Shown: piece by piece, positions 45,985 to 58,599 of the stretch | Layout: each line of letters opens with the position of its first letter | Numbering within the stretch: the first letter of the stretch is position 1 | Notes under the pieces: model-generated | Databases searched by the model: none | Seen by the model: only the letters and a program-made list of their open reading frames with translations | Told to the model about the DNA's origin: nothing | Position numbers and translations under genes: made by a program | Assembly: GCA_002748735.1 (NCBI GenBank) | Contig: PDTC01000011.1 | Location: forward strand, 124,001-188,000 | Direction: 5' to 3' | Length of the DNA: 64,000 nt | Source: Desulfobulbus propionicus | Lineage (GTDB): Bacteria > Desulfobacterota > Desulfobulbia > Desulfobulbales > Desulfobulbaceae

Positions 45985-46013
45985 TTTTCAGCGGGCGTAA
46001 AAATGCGTATAGT
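45985..46013 (+). promoter_or_regulatory. Probable promoter of the M1/ChaN/PDZ gene
   Basis: TTTTCA (45985-45990) and TATAGT (46008-46013) are 17 bases apart. The -10 box overlaps an upstream in-frame ATG (46003), which argues against that ATG as start and for the GTG at 46078. Confidence 0.5.
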
Positions 46014-46077
46014 AAGCGAAAGCTGTTGTCAGCTGATCGTCTCTTCCAACACCCTCACAGCTCAACGGAGGCCTTCT

Positions 46078-49068
46078 GTGCGCATCGTTTTACTGATCTT
46101 TTTCCTGATACCCTCCCACCCCCTTTCCGGGCAGGCGGCACCAGCATCGCCTTTGGTTCATACCATACATGTCAGTTTTGACCTGCATGCAGGGATGGTG
46201 TTCGGTACCAGCCGGTTCGACCTCCCAGGCGAGCGCCCGCTACACCTTGCCTGCGGCCCCCTACTGGTTACCGGTAGCGTTCTCGAAAACGAAAATGGCC
46301 CACAACAGCAGGTTAAACCAGATACCACGAACAGGCTCCATCTGGCGCCTACCCGAAACAAGCGAGTACTCCTGCTCTCCTGGCAGCTCAATGCCAGGGC
46401 CACCCCCGGCAACAGTGTGGCGACCAACGGCATCACCCTTACCGGTTTCTGGCATCCCCGCACCGATGACGATGTCCTTTTCCGTGTTCAGGCCCAGCTA
46501 CCTCCTGGATTTACCGGGATCACCGAGGCCGAGGATCTCGAATACGGTGCCGGCATGCTCAAGGCCACCTTCCCGCATGCGCTGCCGGCCATCAACTTTG
46601 CCGCCGGTCCCTACGAGACCCTTCAACGTAACGTCGGCGCCACAACCCTATTCACCTTTTTCTATCCCGAGGATCGCCAGCTGGCCCAGCGCTACCTTGA
46701 AAAGGGCGCTGCCTTCATCAAACGCTTTGAGGCCCTGCTGGGTCCCTTTCCCTACCGTCGCTATGCAATCGTCGAAAACAGGTTACCCACAGGCTACGGC
46801 ATGCCTACCTACACCCTGCTCGGCCAGGCCGTGGTCAGGCTGCCGTTTATTGTCAACACCTCACTGGGGCACGAAATCCTTCACTCCTGGTTCGGGAACT
46901 CGGTCTTTGTGGCCGAAAATGGCAACTGGTGCGAGGCCCTCACCACCTACCTGGCAGATCAGGCCTTTGCCACAGACCGGGGTGAGGGAGTACTCTTCCG
47001 GAAAGAACAACTGCAGCGTTACCGCGCCTTCAGCTCATCACCCCCCATCACCCTCCAGGAATTTTCTGGCGGTCACCAGCACACTGCCAGGGCAGCTCGT
47101 GTTGTCGGCTACGACAAGGGTTCCATGGTCTTTCATATGCTGCGCAATCTCATCGGTGACCAGCACTTTTTCAGAGGCCTGCAGCTCCTCATCGAAAGGC
47201 ACCGGTTCCAGCGGGCCGGCTGGGCAGACGTGGAAGCCGCATTCGCACGTGCCTCCGGCCAGGACCTGCGCTGGTTTTTTGAGCAATGGCTCGAGCGGGA
47301 CGATATTCCCCGGCTGACAGTTAACAATGTTCGCCTGGATCAACGAGACGGGATGAGCCGGGTGCGTTTCACCCTCACCCAGAAAAACACCACACCCTAT
47401 AGGCTGCTGGTACCTGTTGCCGTAACAACCCCCGGCACCAAAGAGACGCAGAAGTTCACCGTCACCACCACAGACCGGTCCACTGAGGTCGAACTCCTGG
47501 TGAACGGTCTGCCCACAATGTTACAGGTGGACCCTGCGTATGACCTGATGCGAGAGCTGCAGGGAGATGAAGCGGCGCCAACCTGGTCAGTTCTGCTCGG
47601 GACAGAGGGAGCCATCGCTGTCCTGCCCGAGGAGTCTGGTCCCTGGCAGCCCCTGCTAAAGGCCCTGCCCTCAACCATCCAACAACTTCCAGCCAGCGAC
47701 CTGAGTACAGCCCAGCTTGCTACCTCCAGCATTCTCTTTCTCGGAGATTCACCACTGCGTCGCAGCGTTCTCGGAGACGCCACCAAGGACAACGGTTTTT
47801 TCCTACAGGTACTCAACAACCCGCTCAGCCCTGAACAGGTCATGGCAGTGATCGATGCCAGCGATGGCCAGCAGATCAAGCAAGCAACGCCTAAACTTCG
47901 CCATTACAGCAAGTACAGTCGCCTGCACTTCATCGATGGCCACATCCAGGAAAAAACAGTTGCGACCACGGATCAGGGTATTCTCGTCGAACTCTACCCG
48001 ACGCCCCTGGCAACGCCAGTGGACGCACTCCTGCCCTTTACCGCTCTGCTTGAAAAAATAGCAACCAGCCGTGTGATCTACGCCGGTGAGACCCACACCG
48101 ATTACGGGGCCCACCTACTCCAGCTCCAACTGCTGCAAACGCTTCACAGCAAAGACCCCAACATCGCCCTGGGGATGGAGATGTTTCCCCGTTCAGCCCA
48201 ACCAGTCCTCAACGCCTTTATCGAAGGCAAGATCGAGGAGCGGGAGTTCGTGGAGCAATCCGGCTATTACCACGTCTGGGGTTTCGACTACCGCCTGTAC
48301 CGGCCCCTGCTCACCTTTGCCCGCAGACACCAGATACCGGTTATCGGCCTCAACGCAGACCGCAAGCTCATCAGCTCGGTGGCAAAAACCGGCTCAACCG
48401 CCGGACTCAGTGAAGAACAGCTGGCCACCATCCCGGCAAGCCGTGACCTGAGCCTGCCAGGGTACCGCCGGCGGCTACAGTCCGTACACACCATGCATGG
48501 TGGCACCAGCCACCGTATAGATTTCACTGGCTTCCTCCAGGCCCAGGCATTGTGGGATGAAACCATGGCCGCCAGTATTGCCAGCTATCTTGAACGTAAC
48601 CCCCAGCAGCGGATGCTGGTCATTGCCGGAACTGGACATGTCTACCGCGACAATGCCATCCCGCCGAGGGTGAAGCGGCGGCTAAACGTCCGGCAAAGCG
48701 TACTCGCCCTGAGCACATCAGCGGCCCCCAGTACCGGCCCCGAAAAAGATGTTGATTACCTTGTTCGGGGGTTCGCCGCTCAACTACCGCCAGCCGGTAA
48801 ATTAGGAGTTCTCCTGGAGGAAGAGGACAGCGGCCTGCGCATAACCGGTTTCAGCACGACGAGCCGGGGCGGCGAGACTGGCCTGAAAAAAGACGACATC
48901 ATCGTCGCCATAAACGCTGAACCAGTAAAAAGCATTGCGGCGCTGCGATTTACCCTGCTCGATCTATCGGTTGGCGAAAGGGTCACCTTGCAGGTGCAAC
49001 GCGGCGCACATGCTGAAAACATTGAGGTTGAACTGAGTACCCCGCCCCTACCGCCCGGACATCCATAA
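46078..49068 (+). CDS. Exported M1-type peptidase fused to ChaN-like and PDZ domains
   Basis: 996 residues from GTG 46078, six bases behind GGAGG; an ATG 75 bases upstream overlaps the likely promoter. The signal peptide is MRIVLLIFFLIPSHPLSGQAAPA. Residues to ~430 form a gluzincin domain with the zinc motif HEILH (265-269) and Glu286 (spacing 16 rather than the usual 18), including HSWFGNS and KGSMVFHMLRNLIG. Residues ~664-880 are a ChaN/Tiki-type domain (VIYAGETHTDYGAH, ALGMEMFPRSAQPVLNAFIEG, VIAGTGHVYRDNAIP). The last ~90 residues form a PDZ domain (GGETGLKKDDIIVAINAEPVKSI). Probably a periplasmic peptidase; ChaN relatives bind haem or act as metalloproteases. No partner genes are adjacent. 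Confidence 0.85.
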   Translation: MRIVLLIFFLIPSHPLSGQAAPASPLVHTIHVSFDLHAGMVFGTSRFDLPGERPLHLACGPLLVTGSVLENENGPQQQVKPDTTNRLHLAPTRNKRVLLLSWQLNARATPGNSVATNGITLTGFWHPRTDDDVLFRVQAQLPPGFTGITEAEDLEYGAGMLKATFPHALPAINFAAGPYETLQRNVGATTLFTFFYPEDRQLAQRYLEKGAAFIKRFEALLGPFPYRRYAIVENRLPTGYGMPTYTLLGQAVVRLPFIVNTSLGHEILHSWFGNSVFVAENGNWCEALTTYLADQAFATDRGEGVLFRKEQLQRYRAFSSSPPITLQEFSGGHQHTARAARVVGYDKGSMVFHMLRNLIGDQHFFRGLQLLIERHRFQRAGWADVEAAFARASGQDLRWFFEQWLERDDIPRLTVNNVRLDQRDGMSRVRFTLTQKNTTPYRLLVPVAVTTPGTKETQKFTVTTTDRSTEVELLVNGLPTMLQVDPAYDLMRELQGDEAAPTWSVLLGTEGAIAVLPEESGPWQPLLKALPSTIQQLPASDLSTAQLATSSILFLGDSPLRRSVLGDATKDNGFFLQVLNNPLSPEQVMAVIDASDGQQIKQATPKLRHYSKYSRLHFIDGHIQEKTVATTDQGILVELYPTPLATPVDALLPFTALLEKIATSRVIYAGETHTDYGAHLLQLQLLQTLHSKDPNIALGMEMFPRSAQPVLNAFIEGKIEEREFVEQSGYYHVWGFDYRLYRPLLTFARRHQIPVIGLNADRKLISSVAKTGSTAGLSEEQLATIPASRDLSLPGYRRRLQSVHTMHGGTSHRIDFTGFLQAQALWDETMAASIASYLERNPQQRMLVIAGTGHVYRDNAIPPRVKRRLNVRQSVLALSTSAAPSTGPEKDVDYLVRGFAAQLPPAGKLGVLLEEEDSGLRITGFSTTSRGGETGLKKDDIIVAINAEPVKSIAALRFTLLDLSVGERVTLQVQRGAHAENIEVELSTPPLPPGHP

Positions 49069-49249: not shown

Positions 49250-49822
49250 TTATGTTCTGGTGAAGCGTCTGCGGCGAGCCGTGGCAAGACCGACAAGGCC
49301 GGAGCCGAACAGCAACATGGTAGCAGGCTCGGGGACCGGAGTAGTGACAACACGACCATACAGACGAGAGTGATCGAGCCAAATGGCAGCACCCTCTTGA
49401 TTATGGACATCAAGGGTGACGTCAAACATTCCATCGGCATTCAACCAGTGTACATCGACAACCACTGCGTACCGGTCATTGTCGATTGCATCTAATTCTT
49501 CCCACACCATTTGCTGAGCATTAAATCCTAGCCGAACTGACGCTGTATAATCCCATTCAACCAAGAGGTTCTCTGGTCCCCCAGTTACACCGCTGGTGAA
49601 ATCCAATTCAAGGTATGCTTTGGCTACACGGTTACCTGCAATCTCGTCGGTCACGTCGTGGGTATACGTGAAAGATTCGTTATTCGCAATTGACATTGCC
49701 CCGGAAGCACGAGAAGATCCCCAACTATCAACCACATCCTCAAATTGATAGGACTGTGCAAACGCATTTCCACTCAAGCCGAGCAAAACCGTACACACAG
49801 CAGTGACTATCAATTTTTTCAT
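49250..49822 (-). CDS. PEP-CTERM sorting domain protein
   Basis: 190 residues, ATG 49822 behind a strong GAGGAGGAAGG. The signal peptide is MKKLIVTAVCTVLLGLSGNAFA. The mature part is acidic and beta-rich (SWGSSRASGAMSIANNESFTYTHDVTDEI). The C-terminus is the textbook PEP-CTERM signal: VPEPATM, a hydrophobic helix LLFGSGLVGLA and the basic TARRRRFTRT. Exosortase would cut it there and release or anchor it in the exopolysaccharide layer. It has its own sigma-54 promoter and terminator. The matching XrtA-type sugar transferase is at 27.4 kb. Confidence 0.92.
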   Translation of the reverse strand: MKKLIVTAVCTVLLGLSGNAFAQSYQFEDVVDSWGSSRASGAMSIANNESFTYTHDVTDEIAGNRVAKAYLELDFTSGVTGGPENLLVEWDYTASVRLGFNAQQMVWEELDAIDNDRYAVVVDVHWLNADGMFDVTLDVHNQEGAAIWLDHSRLYGRVVTTPVPEPATMLLFGSGLVGLATARRRRFTRT

Positions 49823-50234: not shown

Positions 50235-51035
50235 TTAGCTACTGTGACGGACGGCCTGCTGGAGGCGCAGAGCCAGAACTGTTTTTTCAACGTCATGGAC
50301 GCGGAGAATATCTGCACCATCACCGGCACACAGCGCCGACAACACAGCGGTCGGCCAGTCACGCTGCTCTATTGGCAGGCCGAGCAGTTTCTCAAAAAAA
50401 GATTTTCTCGAATGACCGATGAGGACCGGGCACCCAAGGTGCTTAAACGACCCAATATTTGCCAAGATGGTGAGGTTGTGCTCGAGAGCTTTACCAAAAC
50501 CGATACCAGGATCAAGGATGACGCGCTGCCTGCTGATACCGCCGCGCTCCAGCCAGGCAAGCCGCTCTTCAAAAAATGCGCACACCTCAGCGATCACGTC
50601 ATCGTAATGGGGATTTTTCTGCATGGTGCCGGGCGTTCCCTGCATGTGCATGACAACTACCGAACAGTCACAGCTCTGGGCAACATCGAGCATCTGCTCG
50701 TCCTGACGAAACGCGGCAATATCGTTAATCATGGTCGCACCGGCAGCAAGGGCTTGCCGGGCGACCTCGGCCTTGGTGGTGTCGATACTGATCGGCAGGT
50801 CTGTCACCTGACGGATGCAGTGAAGTGCCGGCAAAACTCGGGCAAGCTCCTCGGCCTCGCTTACCGGTTCCGCAAAGGGTCGGGTTGACTCACCGCCAAC
50901 ATCAATAATATCAGCACCGGCTTCGACCATCCTGGTCACCTGGGCAAGGAGGTGTTCCTCAGCCAGGTATGCGCCGCCATCAGAAAAGCTGTCCGGCGTG
51001 ACATTGAGGATTCCCATAACTTGAGGGCACGGCAT
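50235..51035 (-). CDS. folP: Dihydropteroate synthase
   Basis: 266 residues from ATG 51035 (AAGGAG seven bases upstream). It condenses p-aminobenzoate with dihydropterin pyrophosphate in folate synthesis. VMGILNVTPDSFSDGG, ADIIDVGGESTRP, SIDTTKAEVARQAL, INDIAAFR, VVMHMQGTPGTMQ, DPGIGFGK and GHSRKSFF are the family motifs. In many relatives folP lies directly behind ftsH; here three propeller genes stand between them. Confidence 0.97.
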   Translation of the reverse strand: MPCPQVMGILNVTPDSFSDGGAYLAEEHLLAQVTRMVEAGADIIDVGGESTRPFAEPVSEAEELARVLPALHCIRQVTDLPISIDTTKAEVARQALAAGATMINDIAAFRQDEQMLDVAQSCDCSVVVMHMQGTPGTMQKNPHYDDVIAEVCAFFEERLAWLERGGISRQRVILDPGIGFGKALEHNLTILANIGSFKHLGCPVLIGHSRKSFFEKLLGLPIEQRDWPTAVLSALCAGDGADILRVHDVEKTVLALRLQQAVRHSS

Positions 51036-51103
51036 CGCGTATCTCCTTCTATTACAGCTTCGCTGGCCTCGAAACAGAACAACGCGCATCTTGGCGAATC
51101 ATC

Positions 51104-51233: not shown

Positions 51234-52313
51234 TTAGTCTCTTTTCTTGGGCAGAAACAGCTCCCAGGGGAAGTCGTTGCTCGCAAGGTCATGGCGAAGA
51301 ATAGTGCCACCATCGCCAACGACAACAACGTCCCTGTCCTCGCTGCCGGAAACGCTATACAAGTCTTCTGTGGTTCCAGAAATCATGGTGCTCCAGCTGC
51401 TGCCATCGTAGTGAAGAATGGTGCCGCTTTTCCCAACGGCAAAAACATCATCAGCGCTACTGCCCCAGATATCGATGAGCTCAGCTGTTCCCGAAGGCAG
51501 GGGCATGGGTTCCCAATAGAGAGAAAGATCATCATCCTCAAGGTAATGGAGGATAACCCCAACAACACCGTTTCCACCAGGGCCCGAAGTACTCCCCACA
51601 GCAAACATATCATTTTCGCTGACTCCCCACACACCATTGAGTTCCACGGATATTTCCAAACTCCAGAGTTTCCACTCCGCCCCGTCATAAAAGAGGAGTG
51701 TACCGCTACTCCCGACAGCAATGGCGAGAGTCTCTTCGTAGGGGAAACTAGACCTCCACCCCCACAGGCTTCTGAGATGTTCTGTGGTATTGGAAATCAT
51801 GTTACTCCAGCTGTTGCCATTGTAGTGACGGATGGTTCCATTGCTCCCCACGGCAAAGACATCACTGCCGCTACTGCCCCACACGTCGGCAAGATTTGCA
51901 TACGTCCCCGAAGTCATTGAGGTCCAGCTGCTGCCATCATAGCGGCGGATGGATCCACCAGCACCGACAGCAAAGACATCATCAGTACTGCTCCCCCACA
52001 CGCCAGAGATAGTTCCCCAACCAGAGCTCGAAGTGCTCCAGCTACCGTCTCTGTAGTGGAAGATGGTAGCGCTTTCGCCGACAGCGAAGACATCATCAGC
52101 GTTGCTCCTCCATACGCCATTGAGTTGTTTTTTCTCACCGGAGTTCATGGCGGTCCAGCTGTTGTTCTCCCGTCGGAGGATGGCACCCTCCTCACCGACA
52201 ACAAAGACATCACTACCGCTGCTGCCCCACACGCCAGTAGCCGAACGTACCCACAGCATAGACATTATCGGAATCGCTTCCCCACACGGCAAAGAAATCC
52301 GTATTGAATGCAC
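51234..52313 (-). CDS. C-terminal part of frame-broken propeller protein, copy 1
   Basis: This frame holds about eight repeats of the type VWGSSGSDVFAVG-x2-GTILHYDG-x2-W-x2-M and ends with the family tail NDFPWELFLPKKRD. It has no signal peptide; its first ~29 codons only overlap the preceding frame. Repeat coding truly begins at about 52237, inside a 113-bp block shared with copy 2. The frame is one base displaced from the N-terminal part (52213-53067). Together the two parts contain 14 repeat motifs, twice seven. Best read as the broken second half of one gene; it could also be silent sequence or an assembly fault. Confidence 0.7.
   Translation of the reverse strand: MHSIRISLPCGEAIPIMSMLWVRSATGVWGSSGSDVFVVGEEGAILRRENNSWTAMNSGEKKQLNGVWRSNADDVFAVGESATIFHYRDGSWSTSSSGWGTISGVWGSSTDDVFAVGAGGSIRRYDGSSWTSMTSGTYANLADVWGSSGSDVFAVGSNGTIRHYNGNSWSNMISNTTEHLRSLWGWRSSFPYEETLAIAVGSSGTLLFYDGAEWKLWSLEISVELNGVWGVSENDMFAVGSTSGPGGNGVVGVILHYLEDDDLSLYWEPMPLPSGTAELIDIWGSSADDVFAVGKSGTILHYDGSSWSTMISGTTEDLYSVSGSEDRDVVVVGDGGTILRHDLASNDFPWELFLPKKRD
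52127..52239. repeat. 113-bp block shared by propeller copies 1 and 2 (first member)
   Basis: The stretch matches 54241-54353 with one difference seen by eye (position 14). It encodes, on the minus strand, TGVWGSSGSDVFVVGEEGAILRR and the following ENNSWTAMNSGEKKQ. In both copies the 5' edge (coding sense) is exactly where the reading frame breaks; beyond the 3' edge the copies diverge. Confidence 0.85.
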
Positions 52314-53067
52314 CAGAAGTCATATATTGCCATTGGTTGTTAGTATAACGAAGAATATGTCCTCGTTCCGCCACAACAAAGACATCGCTACCGCTGCTGC
52401 CCCACACGCCAGTGAACACGGGCTTTACTCCCCCCGGCAACAACGGTAAGGACTCAGAACTCCAGTTGCTACCATCATAGCGGAGGATGGTGCCTTCATC
52501 ACCAACGGCAAAGACATTATCAGTACTGCTCCCCCACACGCCATGAAAAGCTGCTGTCACCCCCGCCGGCAGCCCCATAACGCTCCAGGCGCTGCCATCA
52601 TAGTGGAGAATGGTGCCTTCATCACCAACGGCAAAGACATTATCAGTACTGCTCCCCCACACGCCAGCAAGATCTGCTGTCACTCCCGCCGGCAGCCCCA
52701 TAACGCTCCAGCTGCTACCACTGTAGTGAAGGATGGTGCCGTCATCGCCAACGGCAAAAAGGTCACTGCTGCCATCTCCCCAGATACTTCTAAGAGTGAC
52801 ATCTGTTGCCGAGGGCATACCGGTCCAGACACTGCCATCGTAGTGAAGAATAGTGCCGACTTCACCGACGGCAAAGAGATCATTGGGACTGGTCCCCCAA
52901 ACGTCATTGAGATCATGTCCCTGGGGCAGGGGATTCTCCCAGCACCACTTATCCGCAGAGCAAACCTTTGCCCAGGCCTGATGGCCGCAGACAAGCAACA
53001 GCATGAACCCAACGACAGATGTCAGCGTCAGCCATGATCGAATGACAGCCGTAAATGAATTTTTCAT
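52213..53067 (-). CDS. Secreted propeller-repeat protein, N-terminal part, copy 1 (frame-broken)
   Basis: 284 codons, ATG 53067 with AGGAGGG upstream. The signal peptide is MKNSFTAVIRSWLTLTSVVG with the core MLLLVCGHQAWA. A short Cys-containing linker (KVCSADKWCWENPLPQG) follows, then six ~41-residue repeats (two of them 123 bp apart and nearly identical in DNA). The sixth repeat stops after DNVYAVGTFG and runs out of frame into WRVGQQR. The continuation lies in the overlapping frame ending at 51234. The intact paralogue at 55398-56384 shows that signal peptide and tail belong to one protein. Confidence 0.75.
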   Translation of the reverse strand: MKNSFTAVIRSWLTLTSVVGFMLLLVCGHQAWAKVCSADKWCWENPLPQGHDLNDVWGTSPNDLFAVGEVGTILHYDGSVWTGMPSATDVTLRSIWGDGSSDLFAVGDDGTILHYSGSSWSVMGLPAGVTADLAGVWGSSTDNVFAVGDEGTILHYDGSAWSVMGLPAGVTAAFHGVWGSSTDNVFAVGDEGTILRYDGSNWSSESLPLLPGGVKPVFTGVWGSSGSDVFVVAERGHILRYTNNQWQYMTSGAFNTDFFAVWGSDSDNVYAVGTFGYWRVGQQR

Positions 53068-53304
53068 TGTACTTCCCTCCTCATGGAGTTTTTCTGGTTA
53101 CAGGCAACTTGAAAGAACCATTTGTCTTGTGGCCCTGGTATGTACAGGTTTACCAGTGTATCGCCAATTCATGAGGTGCTCAAGTAAAATTCTCAAAATT
53201 TCATCGTAAAAATACAAAGATTATACGTTTGCTGACAGCATCTCCGCCCCATCTGGATTCAAGACCTATCCCTGGATACGCTGCCGCCTCACTGCCCAGT
53301 CATG
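53068..53304. repeat. Duplicated upstream region, copy 1
   Basis: This intergenic stretch matches 55069-55304 closely, including the conserved minus-strand segment around AAATTTTGAGAATTTTACTTGAGCACCTCATGAAT. A weak promoter TTGAGC-N17-TACACT can be drawn in it. It shows that gene and promoter were duplicated together, about 2.0 kb apart. With 53305-53401 this forms a 334-base gap without genes. Confidence 0.8.
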
Positions 53305-53350
53305 CTGAAAAAAACCGCAATCAAGCAAGACCTGGCGGCTAACACCGGGC

Positions 53351-53389
53351 AAAAAAAAAGGCCGGACGCTAGTCGCGTCCGGCCTTTTT
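53351..53389 (-). terminator. Strong (bidirectional) terminator of propeller copy 2
   Basis: GGCCGGACGC (53360-53369) pairs perfectly with GCGTCCGGCC (53375-53384), loop of five, flanked by nine A and five T. On the minus strand it follows the stop at 53402 with a nine-T tail. Confidence 0.9.
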
Positions 53390-53401
53390 CCAGGACTTTT
53401 T

Positions 53402-54346
53402 TTAGTTTCTTTTCTTGGGCAGAAACAGCTCCCAGGGAAAATCTTTGCTTTCAAGGTCACGGCGCAGGATGGTACCGTCGTCAGACCCGACAACAACAAC
53501 ATCCTTACCCCTACTTCCGGAAATGCCAGAAAAATTATCTGTGGCTCCAGAAATCATGGGGCTCCATTCATTGCCATCGTAATGAAGGATGGTGCCGCTA
53601 TCACCAACGGCAAAGACGTCTCTGCCGCTACTCCCCCACACGCCAGCAAGATCTGCTGTTGTATTCGAGGTCATAGTGCTCCAGCTGCTACCATCGTAGT
53701 GAAGGATGGTGCCGGCATTGCCCACAGCAAAGACATCACTGCCGTTGCTGCCCCATACGCCAGTAAGAGCTGCTGTCGCTCCCGACGGCGGAGTCATGGC
53801 GCTCCAGCCGCCATCATAATGGAAGATCGTCCCATTAGTGCCCACGACAAAGACATCTCTCCTGGCACTTCCCCAGACGGCGAGAAAATTTCTGTTCACA
53901 AAGGTATAGGTGGTCCAACCACTGCCATCGTAGTGGGTAATGACTCCACTCCCCCCTTGTCTCCCCACGGCAAAGACATCACTACCGCTACTGCCCCAAA
54001 TGCCATTAAGCCGTGCCGATGCATCGAACATCGAGCTCCAGCTATTGCCATCGTAGTGGCGAATGTAGTTATAGCTGATAGCAAAGACATCATCAGCGCT
54101 ACTGCCCCATACAGCCTGAAGTGCTATTGTCGTCCCCGAGTTCATGGCGGTCCAGCTGCTGCCATCGTGGCGAAGAACGGTACCGCCATTGCCAACGGCG
54201 AAGGCATCACTGTCGCTACTCCTCCACACGGCTCTGAGCTGTTTTTTCTCACCAGAGTTCATGGCGGTCCAGCTGTTGTTCTCCCGTCGGAGGATGGCAC
54301 CCTCCTCACCGACAACAAAGACATCACTACCGCTGCTGCCCCACAC
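53402..54346 (-). CDS. C-terminal part of frame-broken propeller protein, copy 2
   Basis: 314 codons beginning at a GTG that is simply the Val of the first VWGSSGSDVF repeat; a TGA lies six codons upstream and no ribosome binding site is present. It contains eight repeats and ends in KDFPWELFLPKKRN. The frame is two bases displaced from the N-terminal part (54259-55068), whereas copy 1 is displaced by one. The first ~113 bp are the block shared with copy 1. Probably not translated on its own. Confidence 0.7.
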   Translation of the reverse strand: MWGSSGSDVFVVGEEGAILRRENNSWTAMNSGEKKQLRAVWRSSDSDAFAVGNGGTVLRHDGSSWTAMNSGTTIALQAVWGSSADDVFAISYNYIRHYDGNSWSSMFDASARLNGIWGSSGSDVFAVGRQGGSGVITHYDGSGWTTYTFVNRNFLAVWGSARRDVFVVGTNGTIFHYDGGWSAMTPPSGATAALTGVWGSNGSDVFAVGNAGTILHYDGSSWSTMTSNTTADLAGVWGSSGRDVFAVGDSGTILHYDGNEWSPMISGATDNFSGISGSRGKDVVVVGSDDGTILRRDLESKDFPWELFLPKKRN

Positions 54347-54353
54347 GCCAGTA
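54241..54353. repeat. 113-bp block shared by propeller copies 1 and 2 (second member)
   Basis: Counterpart of 52127-52239 with one visible difference. The frame break of copy 2 lies at its coding-sense 5' edge (HYDG joined to TGVWG with the intervening half repeat missing). Confidence 0.85.
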
Positions 54354-55068
54354 TACCATCATAGTGGAGAATGGTACCATAGTCCGCCACGGCAAAGACA
54401 TCATTGCCGCTGCTGCCCCACACACCATTGAGATTTCTTCCCGTATTCGAAGACATGGCGGCCCAAGTGCTGCCATCATAGCGGAGGATAGTACCTCCAT
54501 CACCAACGGCAAAGACATCACTACCGCTGCTCCCCCACACGCCATGAAAAGCTGCTGTCACCCCCGCCGGCAGCCCCATAACGCTCCAGGCACTGCCATC
54601 ATAGTGGAGGATGGTGCCGCTCGTTCCCACGGCAAAGACATCACTGCCGCTACTGCCCCACACGCCAGCAAGATCCGCTGTCACTCCCGGCGGCAGCGCC
54701 ATAGCACTCCAGTCGCTGCCATCATAATGAAGAATGGTACCGCTATCACCAACGGCAAAAAGATCACTGCTACCGTCTCCCCAGATACTTCTAAGAGTGA
54801 CATCTGTTGTCGAGGGCATGCCGGTCCAGACACTACCATCGTAGTGAAGAATAGTGCCGACCTCACCGACGGCAAAGAGATCATTGGGGCTGGTCCCCCA
54901 AACGTCATTGAGATCATATCCCTGGGGCAAGGGATTCTCCCAGCACCACTTATCCGCAGAGCAAACCTTTGCCCAGGCCTGATGGCCGCAGACAAGCAAC
55001 AGCATGAACCCAACGACAGATGTCAGCATCAGCCATGATCGAATGACAGCCGTAAATGAATTTTTCAT
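54259..55068 (-). CDS. Secreted propeller-repeat protein, N-terminal part, copy 2 (frame-broken)
   Basis: 269 codons, ATG 55068 preceded by GAGGAGGGA. The signal peptide and first repeats are almost identical to copy 1 (one residue change in the first 50: LML for LTL). Five repeats are in frame; the fifth ends at GTILHYDG and the frame then runs through 31 unrelated residues (ILACGAAAVVMSLL...) to a stop. The true continuation is the frame at 53402-54346. Missing sequence between HYDG and TGVWG corresponds to roughly half a repeat. Confidence 0.75.
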   Translation of the reverse strand: MKNSFTAVIRSWLMLTSVVGFMLLLVCGHQAWAKVCSADKWCWENPLPQGYDLNDVWGTSPNDLFAVGEVGTILHYDGSVWTGMPSTTDVTLRSIWGDGSSDLFAVGDSGTILHYDGSDWSAMALPPGVTADLAGVWGSSGSDVFAVGTSGTILHYDGSAWSVMGLPAGVTAAFHGVWGSSGSDVFAVGDGGTILRYDGSTWAAMSSNTGRNLNGVWGSSGNDVFAVADYGTILHYDGILACGAAAVVMSLLSVRRVPSSDGRTTAGPP

Positions 55069-55304
55069 TGTGCGTCCCTCCTCATGGAGTTTTTCTGGTT
55101 ACAGGCAACTTGAAAGAACCATCTATCTCCTGACCCTGGTAGTACAGATGTACTAATCGTACCGCCGATTCATGAGGTGCTCAAGTAAAATTCTCAAAAT
55201 TTCATCGTAAAAATACAAAGATTATACATTTGCTGACAGCATCTCCGCCCATTTGGATTCAAGCCCTATCCCTGGATACACTGCCGCCTCGCCACCCAGT
55301 CATG
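55069..55304. repeat. Duplicated upstream region, copy 2
   Basis: Matches 53068-53304. With 55305-55397 it forms a 329-base gap without genes. Near 55355-55375 a small hairpin GCCAG/CTGGC followed by seven T on the minus strand may terminate the third propeller gene. Confidence 0.75.
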
Positions 55305-55397
55305 TGGGCAAAAGCAGTAATCCACGAGCAACTGCCTGCCAACACCGGGCAAAAAAACGCCAGACGCTGGCAGTATCCGTTGTTCTCCAGGACGTTT

Positions 55398-56384
55398 TCA
55401 GTCTCTTTTTTTTGGCAGGAACATCTCCCAGGGGAAGTCGTTGTCAAGGGTGCATCTCAGGATGGTACCGTCATACCCCACGGCAAAGACATCTCTGCCA
55501 CTGATTCCCCAAACACCATTGAGCTCTTTTATCGTTTCCGGGGTCATATCGGTCCAGGTTTTGCCATCGTAGTGGAGAATGACTCCACGATGAATCCCCC
55601 CGGCTCCCACGGCAAAGACATCGCTGCCGTTGTTTCCCCAGACACCAGCAAGATCAAGATCCCTTGTCGTGTTCAAAGGCATTGTTTCCCATGTGCTGCC
55701 ATTGTAGTGGAGGATGGTGCGATCATCCCCGACGGCAAAGACATCATTACTGCTGCTCCCCCAGATACCAGTAAGATATGTGGTCGTACCCGAAAGCATG
55801 TGTGTCCATTGGTTGCCATCGTAGTGGAAGATGGTACCGCTCGTTCCCACGGCAAAGACATCTCCGGCGCTACTCCCCCAGACATCCTCAAGATGGTCAG
55901 TAAGTTCCAGACTCATATCGACCCATTCGTTGCCATTGTAGTGGAGGATAGTACCACTATCCCCGACGACAAAAACATTACTGCCACTGCTCCCCCACAC
56001 CCCAGCAAGCCTTGTTTCCCAGTCCATAACGTTCCAGCCTTCACCGTCGTAGTGGAGAATCTTCCGATACCCGACGGCAAAAACATTACGGTCACTGCTT
56101 CCCCAGACATCATAGAGTAAATTTGTTCTCTTCAAATGCATGGGGTTCCAGTCACTGCCATTATAATGGAGGATGACGCCCGCATTCCCCACCACAAAAA
56201 GATCACTGGTGCTGCTTCCCCAGATACTTTGAAAAATGTCTGACGTTCCCGGTTCCATGGCGGTCCATCCACTCGAACAACCCTTTGCCCAAGCCTGATG
56301 ACCGCAGACAAGCAACAGTAAAACTCCGACGACGGATGTCAGTATCAGCCATGATCGGGTGGCAAGTGTGAATAAAGTTTTCAT
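55398..56384 (-). CDS. Secreted seven-repeat beta-propeller-like protein (intact copy)
   Basis: 328 residues, ATG 56384 with GGAGGGA upstream. The signal peptide MKTLFTLATRSWLILTSVVG...CGHQAWA precedes seven repeats of ~41 residues (IWGSSTSDLFVVG to VWGISGRDVFAVG), the number expected for one seven-bladed propeller, and the tail NDFPWEMFLPKKRD. The repeat consensus (WGSS-x2-DVFAVG-x2-GTILHYDG-x2-W) is known from many bacterial exported proteins of unknown function. It has no membrane anchor, so it is probably periplasmic or secreted. It is the ancestor-like, unbroken member of the three-locus array. Confidence 0.85.
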   Translation of the reverse strand: MKTLFTLATRSWLILTSVVGVLLLLVCGHQAWAKGCSSGWTAMEPGTSDIFQSIWGSSTSDLFVVGNAGVILHYNGSDWNPMHLKRTNLLYDVWGSSDRNVFAVGYRKILHYDGEGWNVMDWETRLAGVWGSSGSNVFVVGDSGTILHYNGNEWVDMSLELTDHLEDVWGSSAGDVFAVGTSGTIFHYDGNQWTHMLSGTTTYLTGIWGSSSNDVFAVGDDRTILHYNGSTWETMPLNTTRDLDLAGVWGNNGSDVFAVGAGGIHRGVILHYDGKTWTDMTPETIKELNGVWGISGRDVFAVGYDGTILRCTLDNDFPWEMFLPKKRD

Positions 56385-56557
56385 GGTGCTTCCCTCCTTG
56401 TGTAATGGTGCTGATTACAGGCAAGCACCGTTTGCCTTGCAGCTCTGCCATCTGGATCTGTAAGCATCCCAGAGTGACGGCGCTGCATCTCGCTGCCCAT
56501 CATGTGGGCAAAAGCAGCAATCCAGTAAGACCCGCCTCCCCTGGGCCTGAGCAAGCC

Positions 56558-56591
56558 CAAAAAAAAGGGGGACACCCAGGTAGCGTCCCCC
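56558..56591 (-). terminator. Rho-independent terminator of ftsH
   Basis: GGGGGAC (56567-56573) and GTCCCCC (56585-56591) pair with an 11-base loop; eight A on the plus strand (56559-56566) give an eight-T tail on the minus strand. It lies 41 bases behind the ftsH stop and separates ftsH from the propeller genes. Confidence 0.88.
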
Positions 56592-56631
56592 TCATTCTCG
56601 GCATCCCAACCAGCAAGACTTCCCCGCGTGG

Positions 56632-58599
<1,968 letters not shown>

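What the first reader, a model, noticed from the sequence alone, without database searches (positions are those of the whole stretch)
51234..56384. Tandem array of secreted propeller proteins inserted between ftsH and folP
Three paralogous loci, each with signal peptide, ~41-residue WGSS/DVFAVG/GTILHYDG repeats and the tail FPWE(L/M)FLPKKR(D/N), separate ftsH from folP, which are neighbours in many bacteria. ftsH has its own terminator before the array and two loci carry duplicated promoter regions at a ~2.0 kb period, so the array looks like a later, still expanding insertion. The function of the family is unknown.
Basis: partly seen in the sequence, partly recalled or inferred. Interest (0 to 1): 0.75.

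Follow-up and report, generated by a model that had tools for sequence, protein, structure and literature searches.

The report
Shared tail on unrelated secreted proteins
Three duplicated propeller genes really do sit between ftsH and folP here, but the more interesting thing is their last dozen residues, a short FPW-x-x-F-L-P tail that many otherwise unrelated, apparently exported proteins of related bacteria also carry and that looks like an undescribed address label.

Summary
Insertion is supported: ftsH directly precedes folP in 23 of 29 relatives' loci held.

The tail is not peculiar to the propellers. A codon pattern for W-x-L-F-(L/F)-P-A-I hits 83 places in 50 of 257 genomes of the order (control 3); F-P-W-x-phi-F-phi-P hits 263 in 79 of 257, up to 23 per genome (control 11). 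Of 193 places read, 134 are C-terminal, 132 of them with the Trp 10-18 residues before the stop. 128 bodies fall into 33 BLAST clusters. Identical peptides have different DNA (WNLFLPAI 21 of 21), so the peptide is under selection.

It resembles a sorting or anchoring tag: it follows choice-of-anchor J and Q domains and, in one family, stands where a homologue has a VPLPA-like tail. But it has no membrane helix (0 of 134) and does not track exosortase (10 of 33). Eight cases lie just behind a signal-peptide-like stretch, favouring docking over cleavage. Receptor and localisation remain unknown.

The parts
56632..58599 (-). ftsH, left neighbour (upstream) of the array
   Evidence: ORF, 655 aa; tblastn relatives in 23 of 29 folP loci
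56565..56593 (-). terminator-like hairpin behind ftsH
55398..56384 (-). prop1: intact 328-aa propeller-repeat protein, 7 units, signal-peptide-like N-terminus
55401..55436 (-). tail FPWEMFLPKKRD of prop1
   Evidence: read; pattern hit
53402..55068 (-). prop2: two ORFs (55068-54259 and 54346-53402), 5+8 units, frame break at about 54353
53405..53440 (-). tail FPWELFLPKKRN of prop2
   Evidence: read
51234..53067 (-). prop3: two ORFs (53067-52213 and 52313-51234), 6+8 units, frame break at about 52239
51237..51272 (-). tail FPWELFLPKKRD of prop3
   Evidence: read
54255..54353 (-). 99-base block identical to 52239-52141, starting at the frame break of prop2
52141..52239 (-). 99-base block identical to 54353-54255, starting at the frame break of prop3
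50235..51089 (-). folP, right neighbour (downstream) of the array
   Evidence: ORF, 284 aa; relatives in 63 of 67 genomes, own included

Best explanation
The array is a set of duplicated genes for exported propeller-repeat proteins (7 or 14 units) inserted between ftsH and folP. Each protein ends in a tag, consensus F-P-W-x-(L/M)-F-L-P-A-I followed by about 3-7 polar or small residues, which genomes of this order attach to many unrelated exported-looking proteins. Most likely mechanism: after export by Sec (only signal-peptide-like N-termini are shown) and passage to the outside (inferred), the tag binds, as a short extended hydrophobic peptide, to a dedicated receptor at the cell surface or matrix (inferred, not identified), so that different domains are displayed at one site. 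Shown: one selected peptide on unrelated bodies, nearly always terminal, without a membrane-spanning helix, not tracking exosortase, standing in one family where a homologue has a known-type sorting tail. Inferred: non-covalent docking, because the motif also occurs just behind signal peptides and in linkers, where cleavage at the motif would cut the protein off.
For: Pattern counts against reversed control: 83 against 3 (places read) and 263 against 11 (sum) in 257 genomes; own genome 5 against 0, the 5 being the 5 propeller genes. 134 of 193 places read are C-terminal, 132 with W 10-18 residues before the stop. Positions not asked for by the pattern agree: A at +6 in 73 of 90 C-terminal FPW hits against 1 of 18 in short ORFs; F at -2 in 35 of 53 LFLPAI hits. 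128 bodies in 33 BLAST clusters. Synonymous DNA: WNLFLPAI 21 of 21 and WPMFLPAI 15 of 15 distinct. Signal-peptide-like starts in 48 of 58 tail ORFs of 300 aa or more against 47 of 132 other long ORFs of the same loci. Choice-of-anchor J 43.8 bits (cut-off 30) and Q 27.4 bits (cut-off 25) directly before the tail. Tail swap in one family: 6 genomes of genus g25 end FNWNLFLPA(I/M), the G001 homologue ends VPLPA-like. Motif just behind a signal-peptide-like stretch in 8 cases.
Against: No experiment, no localisation and no receptor; neighbour scans found no common partner gene. The swap rests on one homologue, whose tail scores below the cut-offs of VPLPA-CTERM (20.4 against 25.35) and PEP-CTERM (15.8 against 16); of the two other non-g25 homologues one end was not resolved and the other shows neither tail in the frame held. 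The patterns select the motif, and the FPW places read (119 of 263) come first from the richest genomes. One single-linkage cluster holds 72 of 128 bodies. Tails of the window itself lack A-I (K-K instead). The signal-peptide test is a crude hydropathy rule.
Confidence: 0.55

Rival explanations
1. The tail is a processed sorting signal: an unidentified enzyme, not exosortase, cleaves at the motif and attaches the protein to the surface, as sortase-like systems do.
For: C-terminal in 134 of 193 places read; follows choice-of-anchor domains; takes the place of a VPLPA-like tail once; several tags per genome on unrelated proteins, as for PEP-CTERM and GlyGly-CTERM (abstracts).
Against: No membrane helix in 0 of 134 reaching the 1.6 threshold; no constant basic end (net charge +2 or more in 27 of 134); eight cases just behind a signal peptide and others in linkers, where cleavage would release the protein.
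Confidence: 0.22
2. The tail is a secretion signal read by the outer-membrane export machinery and has no role after export.
For: Tail ORFs look exported (48 of 58 with signal-peptide-like start); terminal position.
Against: No test was possible; linker and N-terminal positions are unusual for such a signal (general knowledge).
Confidence: 0.12
3. The tail inserts on its own into a membrane interface as a short hydrophobic peptide, without a receptor.
For: W followed by L/M-F-L-P-A-I is hydrophobic; frog peptides beginning FLP are membrane-active (recalled, not looked up).
Against: Letter-for-letter constancy (W, F and P were fixed by the patterns, but A at +6 in 73 of 90 was not) is more than a hydrophobicity rule needs.
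Confidence: 0.08
4. A DNA-level repeat or mobile cassette at gene ends explains the common letters; the peptide has no role.
For: Palindromic repeats lie behind at least one tail gene (L054).
Against: Identical 8-residue peptides have all-different DNA (21 of 21, 15 of 15); N-terminal and linker copies keep the peptide.
Confidence: 0.03

Closest known systems
PEP-CTERM / exosortase (and the VPLPA-CTERM variant)
   Same: Short C-terminal homology region on many unrelated exported proteins, several per genome, sporadic distribution (abstract of PMC1569441); one family carries either tail.
   Different: No PEP, no transmembrane helix (0 of 134), no constant basic end; 23 of 33 genomes with the strict tail have no PF09721 match.
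GlyGly-CTERM / rhombosortase and MYXO-CTERM / myxosortase
   Same: C-terminal tags on proteins homologous only in the tag; families whose members swap tags (abstract of PMC3237569); surface sorting (abstract of PMC11980579).
   Different: Those are tripartite: motif (SGGS-like, or with an invariant Cys), helix, basic end. The present tail has neither motif nor helix.
Ycf48-like PSII_BNR (PF14870, NF010237) and Tectonin (PF19193) propellers
   Same: Weak similarity of the repeat bodies: PF14870 25.5 bits and NF010237 29 bits on the 5' ORF of prop3, Tectonin 21.2 bits on prop1.
   Different: All under the curated cut-offs (27, 326 and 30 bits); best PDB chain for prop1 only E 0.033.

Membership tests
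PEP-CTERM / exosortase tag | near-invariant Pro-Glu-Pro or VPLPA-type motif | tested here: not met
   consensus FPWxxFLPAI; four tails alone give no NCBIfam match
PEP-CTERM / exosortase tag | transmembrane helix after the motif | tested here: not met
   0 of 134 tails reach mean hydropathy 1.6 over 19 residues, maximum 1.57
PEP-CTERM / exosortase tag | basic cluster at the end | tested here: inconclusive
   net charge after the motif 0 in 40, +1 in 49, +2 in 26, +5 in 1, negative in 18 of 134
PEP-CTERM / exosortase tag | co-occurrence with exosortase | tested here: not met
   strict-tail genomes: 10 with, 23 without PF09721; other genomes 88 with, 136 without; Fisher p 0.35. Genomes with FPW-type tails only were counted as tail-free in this test.
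MYXO-CTERM | invariant Cys in the motif, then helix and Arg-rich end | tested here: not met
   motif columns -6 to +17 hold no frequent Cys; no helix
GlyGly-CTERM | SGGS-like motif, helix, basic end | tested here: not met
C-terminal sorting or anchoring tag in the wide sense | same short terminus on proteins with unrelated bodies | tested here: met
   33 BLAST clusters in 128 bodies
C-terminal sorting or anchoring tag in the wide sense | signal peptide at the N-terminus | tested here: inconclusive
   48 of 58 against 47 of 132 by a simple hydropathy rule
C-terminal sorting or anchoring tag in the wide sense | needed for location of the protein | not testable with these tools
   needs an experiment
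Ycf48-like PSII_BNR propeller | score over the curated cut-off | tested here: not met
   25.5 against 27 bits
Seven-bladed beta-propeller fold | ring of seven four-stranded blades | not testable with these tools

The most novel reading that the evidence does not exclude
The FPW-x-x-F-L-P-A-I peptide is a new class of protein-sorting label in Gram-negative bacteria: an uncleaved, helix-free docking tag that works at either end of a protein, is read by an unknown dedicated receptor and is used in this order to display many unrelated domains per genome, beside or instead of exosortase.
Probability: 0.35. Interest if true: 0.85.

Novelty: new variant of a known kind. Interest (0 to 1): 0.66.

Why it matters
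If the tail is a sorting or docking tag, it marks part of the exported proteome of a bacterial order whose genomes here are mostly drafts, it implies an unknown receptor or enzyme that phylogenetic profiling could find, and it is short enough (about 12 residues) to be moved onto a reporter. It would also explain why propeller proteins of no recognisable family share an odd constant end.

Tried and rejected
Partner gene beside the tail genes: clusters of neighbouring ORFs in the strict-pattern loci and the FPW loci L252-L330 gave orthologous neighbourhoods and one common signalling-type gene, no shared partner. Exosortase as partner: no association.

Tail outside the order: the strict pattern gave 9 places in the 379 genomes outside it (control 2); only G632, with the motif just behind a signal-peptide-like stretch, looked real. 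The FPW pattern in 385 genomes of the phylum (16 of them in the order) gave 80 out-of-order places against 19 in the control (my count from the table), so it does exceed its control there. I read 70 of these 80 (26, 44). About 28 are interior to long membrane-protein frames that look like ArnT-type glycosyltransferases (label recalled); 3 met the C-terminal rule, none with A-I, and look like chance frames. Ten listed places were not read.

Literature: 12 tail strings (LFLPAI, FLPAIL, FLPAII, WNLFLPA, WALFLPA, LFLPAIT, FPWPMFLP, FPWPMF, PWPMFLP, PWNLFLP, MFLPAI, FPWPLFLP) gave 0 papers. Searches on sorting signals listed no paper that I recognised as describing this tail (listings only). A search on this repeat type gave nothing specific (listing only). 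Closing strand of the propeller: dropped, because unrelated folds carry the tail.

Counting rules and rows dropped: C-terminal means at most 25 residues from W to the stop and a frame of at least 60 codons in all; one search asked for 60 codons upstream and gave 53 C-terminal, 13 short-ORF and 17 other of 83. The 134 include the own copies on C4 and C6, not the three of the window. In one search two loci (L110, L154) were dropped by eye as not exported-looking, and 11 N-terminal or linker cases were added by hand; both loci stay in the 134. The looser own-genome pattern TGGNNNNTNTTYYTNCC gave 23 hits with 11 in its control.
Full report
What is in the window. On the minus strand the order is ftsH (58599-56632), prop1 (56384-55398), prop2 (55068-53402), prop3 (53067-51234), folP (51089-50235). 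The prop genes code for proteins with a signal-peptide-like start and units of about 39-42 residues with the core WGSS..DVFAVG..GTILHYDG. prop1 has 7 units; the intact paralogue on contig C6 of the same genome has 14; prop3 has 6+8 and prop2 5+8 over two ORFs each. Seven and twice seven fit 7-bladed propellers, but no structure could be predicted and no Pfam or NCBIfam model scores over its cut-off. The genome is a draft of 1.8 Mb in 30 contigs, 85.6% complete; a fifth copy is cut by a contig end (C4). Relatives of the repeat body occur in 15 of 115 genomes searched, the own one counted, and in 13 named loci of other lineages such as Thioploca. Of these named loci, the six whose frame ends were printed (L021-L026) do not end in the tail; propeller proteins of G045, G090, G047, G034 and G018 do, in variants.

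State of the copies. prop2 and prop3 are frame-broken as assembled, both at the 5' edge of one 99-base exact block (54353 and 52239). Two independent breaks at the same base are unlikely: either the break was copied by recombination, or an assembler collapsed repeats there (99 is a common k-mer length, recalled). In 60-base windows the two copies are mostly 93-98% identical from about 55280 to 54745 (one window 83%), 72-90% in the next stretch, and 47-82% after the shared block, so duplication or conversion of the 5' part is the younger event. Growth of propellers by blade duplication is described (PMC9218822, start of the abstract only).

Insertion. Of the 29 relatives' folP loci held, 23 have ftsH immediately upstream on the same strand; of the 6 others, 2 are cut by contig ends and 4 have 1.5 kb of flank without it. 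The loci held are the best-scoring of 63 matching genomes, own included. G+C of the array is 52.6%, of the rest of the window 55.2%.

The tail. In the own genome the codon pattern for F-P-W-x-phi-F-phi-P occurs 5 times, at the 5 propeller genes, against 0 in the reversed control. A looser pattern (23 hits, control 11) led to an unrelated protein on contig C27 ending DFYWPLFLPAITTDQQ. Across the order, W-x-L-F-(L/F)-P-A-I occurs at 83 places in 50 of 257 genomes (control 3) and F-P-W-x-phi-F-phi-P at 263 places in 79 of 257 genomes, up to 23 in one (control 11, sum). I read all 83 of the first and 119 of the second kind, 193 distinct places. Of these 134 are C-terminal, 132 with the Trp 10-18 residues before the stop. 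Letters not asked for by the patterns agree with one consensus: A at +6 in 73 of 90 C-terminal FPW hits but in 1 of 18 in short ORFs; F at -2 in 35 of 53 LFLPAI hits.

It is a selected peptide, not a DNA repeat: the commonest 8-residue forms have a different DNA sequence each time (21 of 21, 15 of 15). It sits on unrelated bodies: 33 single-linkage BLAST clusters in 128, one of which holds 72. Of 16 tail proteins scanned with Pfam, 7 had a match: CARDB and lactonase propeller, InlB-like B-repeats, right-handed beta helix twice, a marginal multicopper oxidase and Big_13 Ig-like. Tail ORFs look exported: 48 of 58 of 300 aa or more against 47 of 132 other long ORFs of the same loci, by a crude rule.

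What it may do. NCBI names domains 'choice-of-anchor' when they precede alternative sorting tails (recalled). J (43.8 bits, cut-off 30) and Q (27.4, cut-off 25) directly precede this tail. In one family, six genomes of genus g25 end FNWNLFLPA(I/M), and the homologue of G001, a genome with exosortase, ends in a VPLPA-like tail at the same place, though under the model's cut-off. Such swapping is described for GlyGly-CTERM, LPXTG and PEP-CTERM (abstract of PMC3237569). Unlike those tags the tail has no transmembrane helix (0 of 134) and no constant basic end, and it does not track exosortase: 10 of 33 strict-tail genomes have a PF09721 match, 88 of the other 224. In 8 cases the motif lies just behind a signal-peptide-like stretch, in five of them with a second copy a little further on; others lie in linkers. 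A cleaved signal would be self-defeating there, a docking motif would not. My preferred mechanism is therefore a docking tag with an unknown receptor; this step is inference.

Range. Outside the order the strict pattern is near its control (9 against 2 in 379 genomes; one looks real, G632). The FPW pattern exceeds its control there (80 against 19 in 369 genomes, counted), but of 70 places read none is a convincing tail, about 28 lying inside membrane proteins that look like glycosyltransferases.

Not shown: location, processing, receptor, fold. No paper holding the tail strings was found in the library searched, which lacks most subscription journals.

Noticed in passing
window 49250-49822 (-): A PEP-CTERM protein (TIGR02595 26 bits over its cut-off 16, PF07589) in a genome where exosortase PF09721 gave no match; the genome is only 85.6% complete.
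   Followed up: partly
window 54255-54353 and 52141-52239: 99-base exact block at the frame breaks of both prop2 and prop3; recombination or assembly collapse.
   Followed up: partly
window 46003-49068 (+): A 1021-aa ORF that reads like an M1-type peptidase followed by a ChaN-like and a PDZ-like part (from the sequence and recall, not searched).
   Followed up: no
window 53248-53357, 55248-55357, 56500-56540: Recurring element around TTGCTGCTTTTGCCCACATGA upstream of the prop genes (families D13, D16).
   Followed up: no
L290, L293, L316, L321: The motif is followed by a Cys-Cys-containing stretch of about 150 residues; in L293 the whole protein is signal peptide, motif and this stretch.
   Followed up: no
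L258, L302, L317: In three genomes a membrane protein that looks like an O-mannosyltransferase (recalled) neighbours a tail gene of one family.
   Followed up: no
L054:1697-2227: Array of a palindromic repeat behind the tail gene of contig C27 (seen in the translated frames).
   Followed up: no
prop1, residues 153-234: Best PDB matches are monocot agglutinins, at an insignificant E of 0.033.
   Followed up: no
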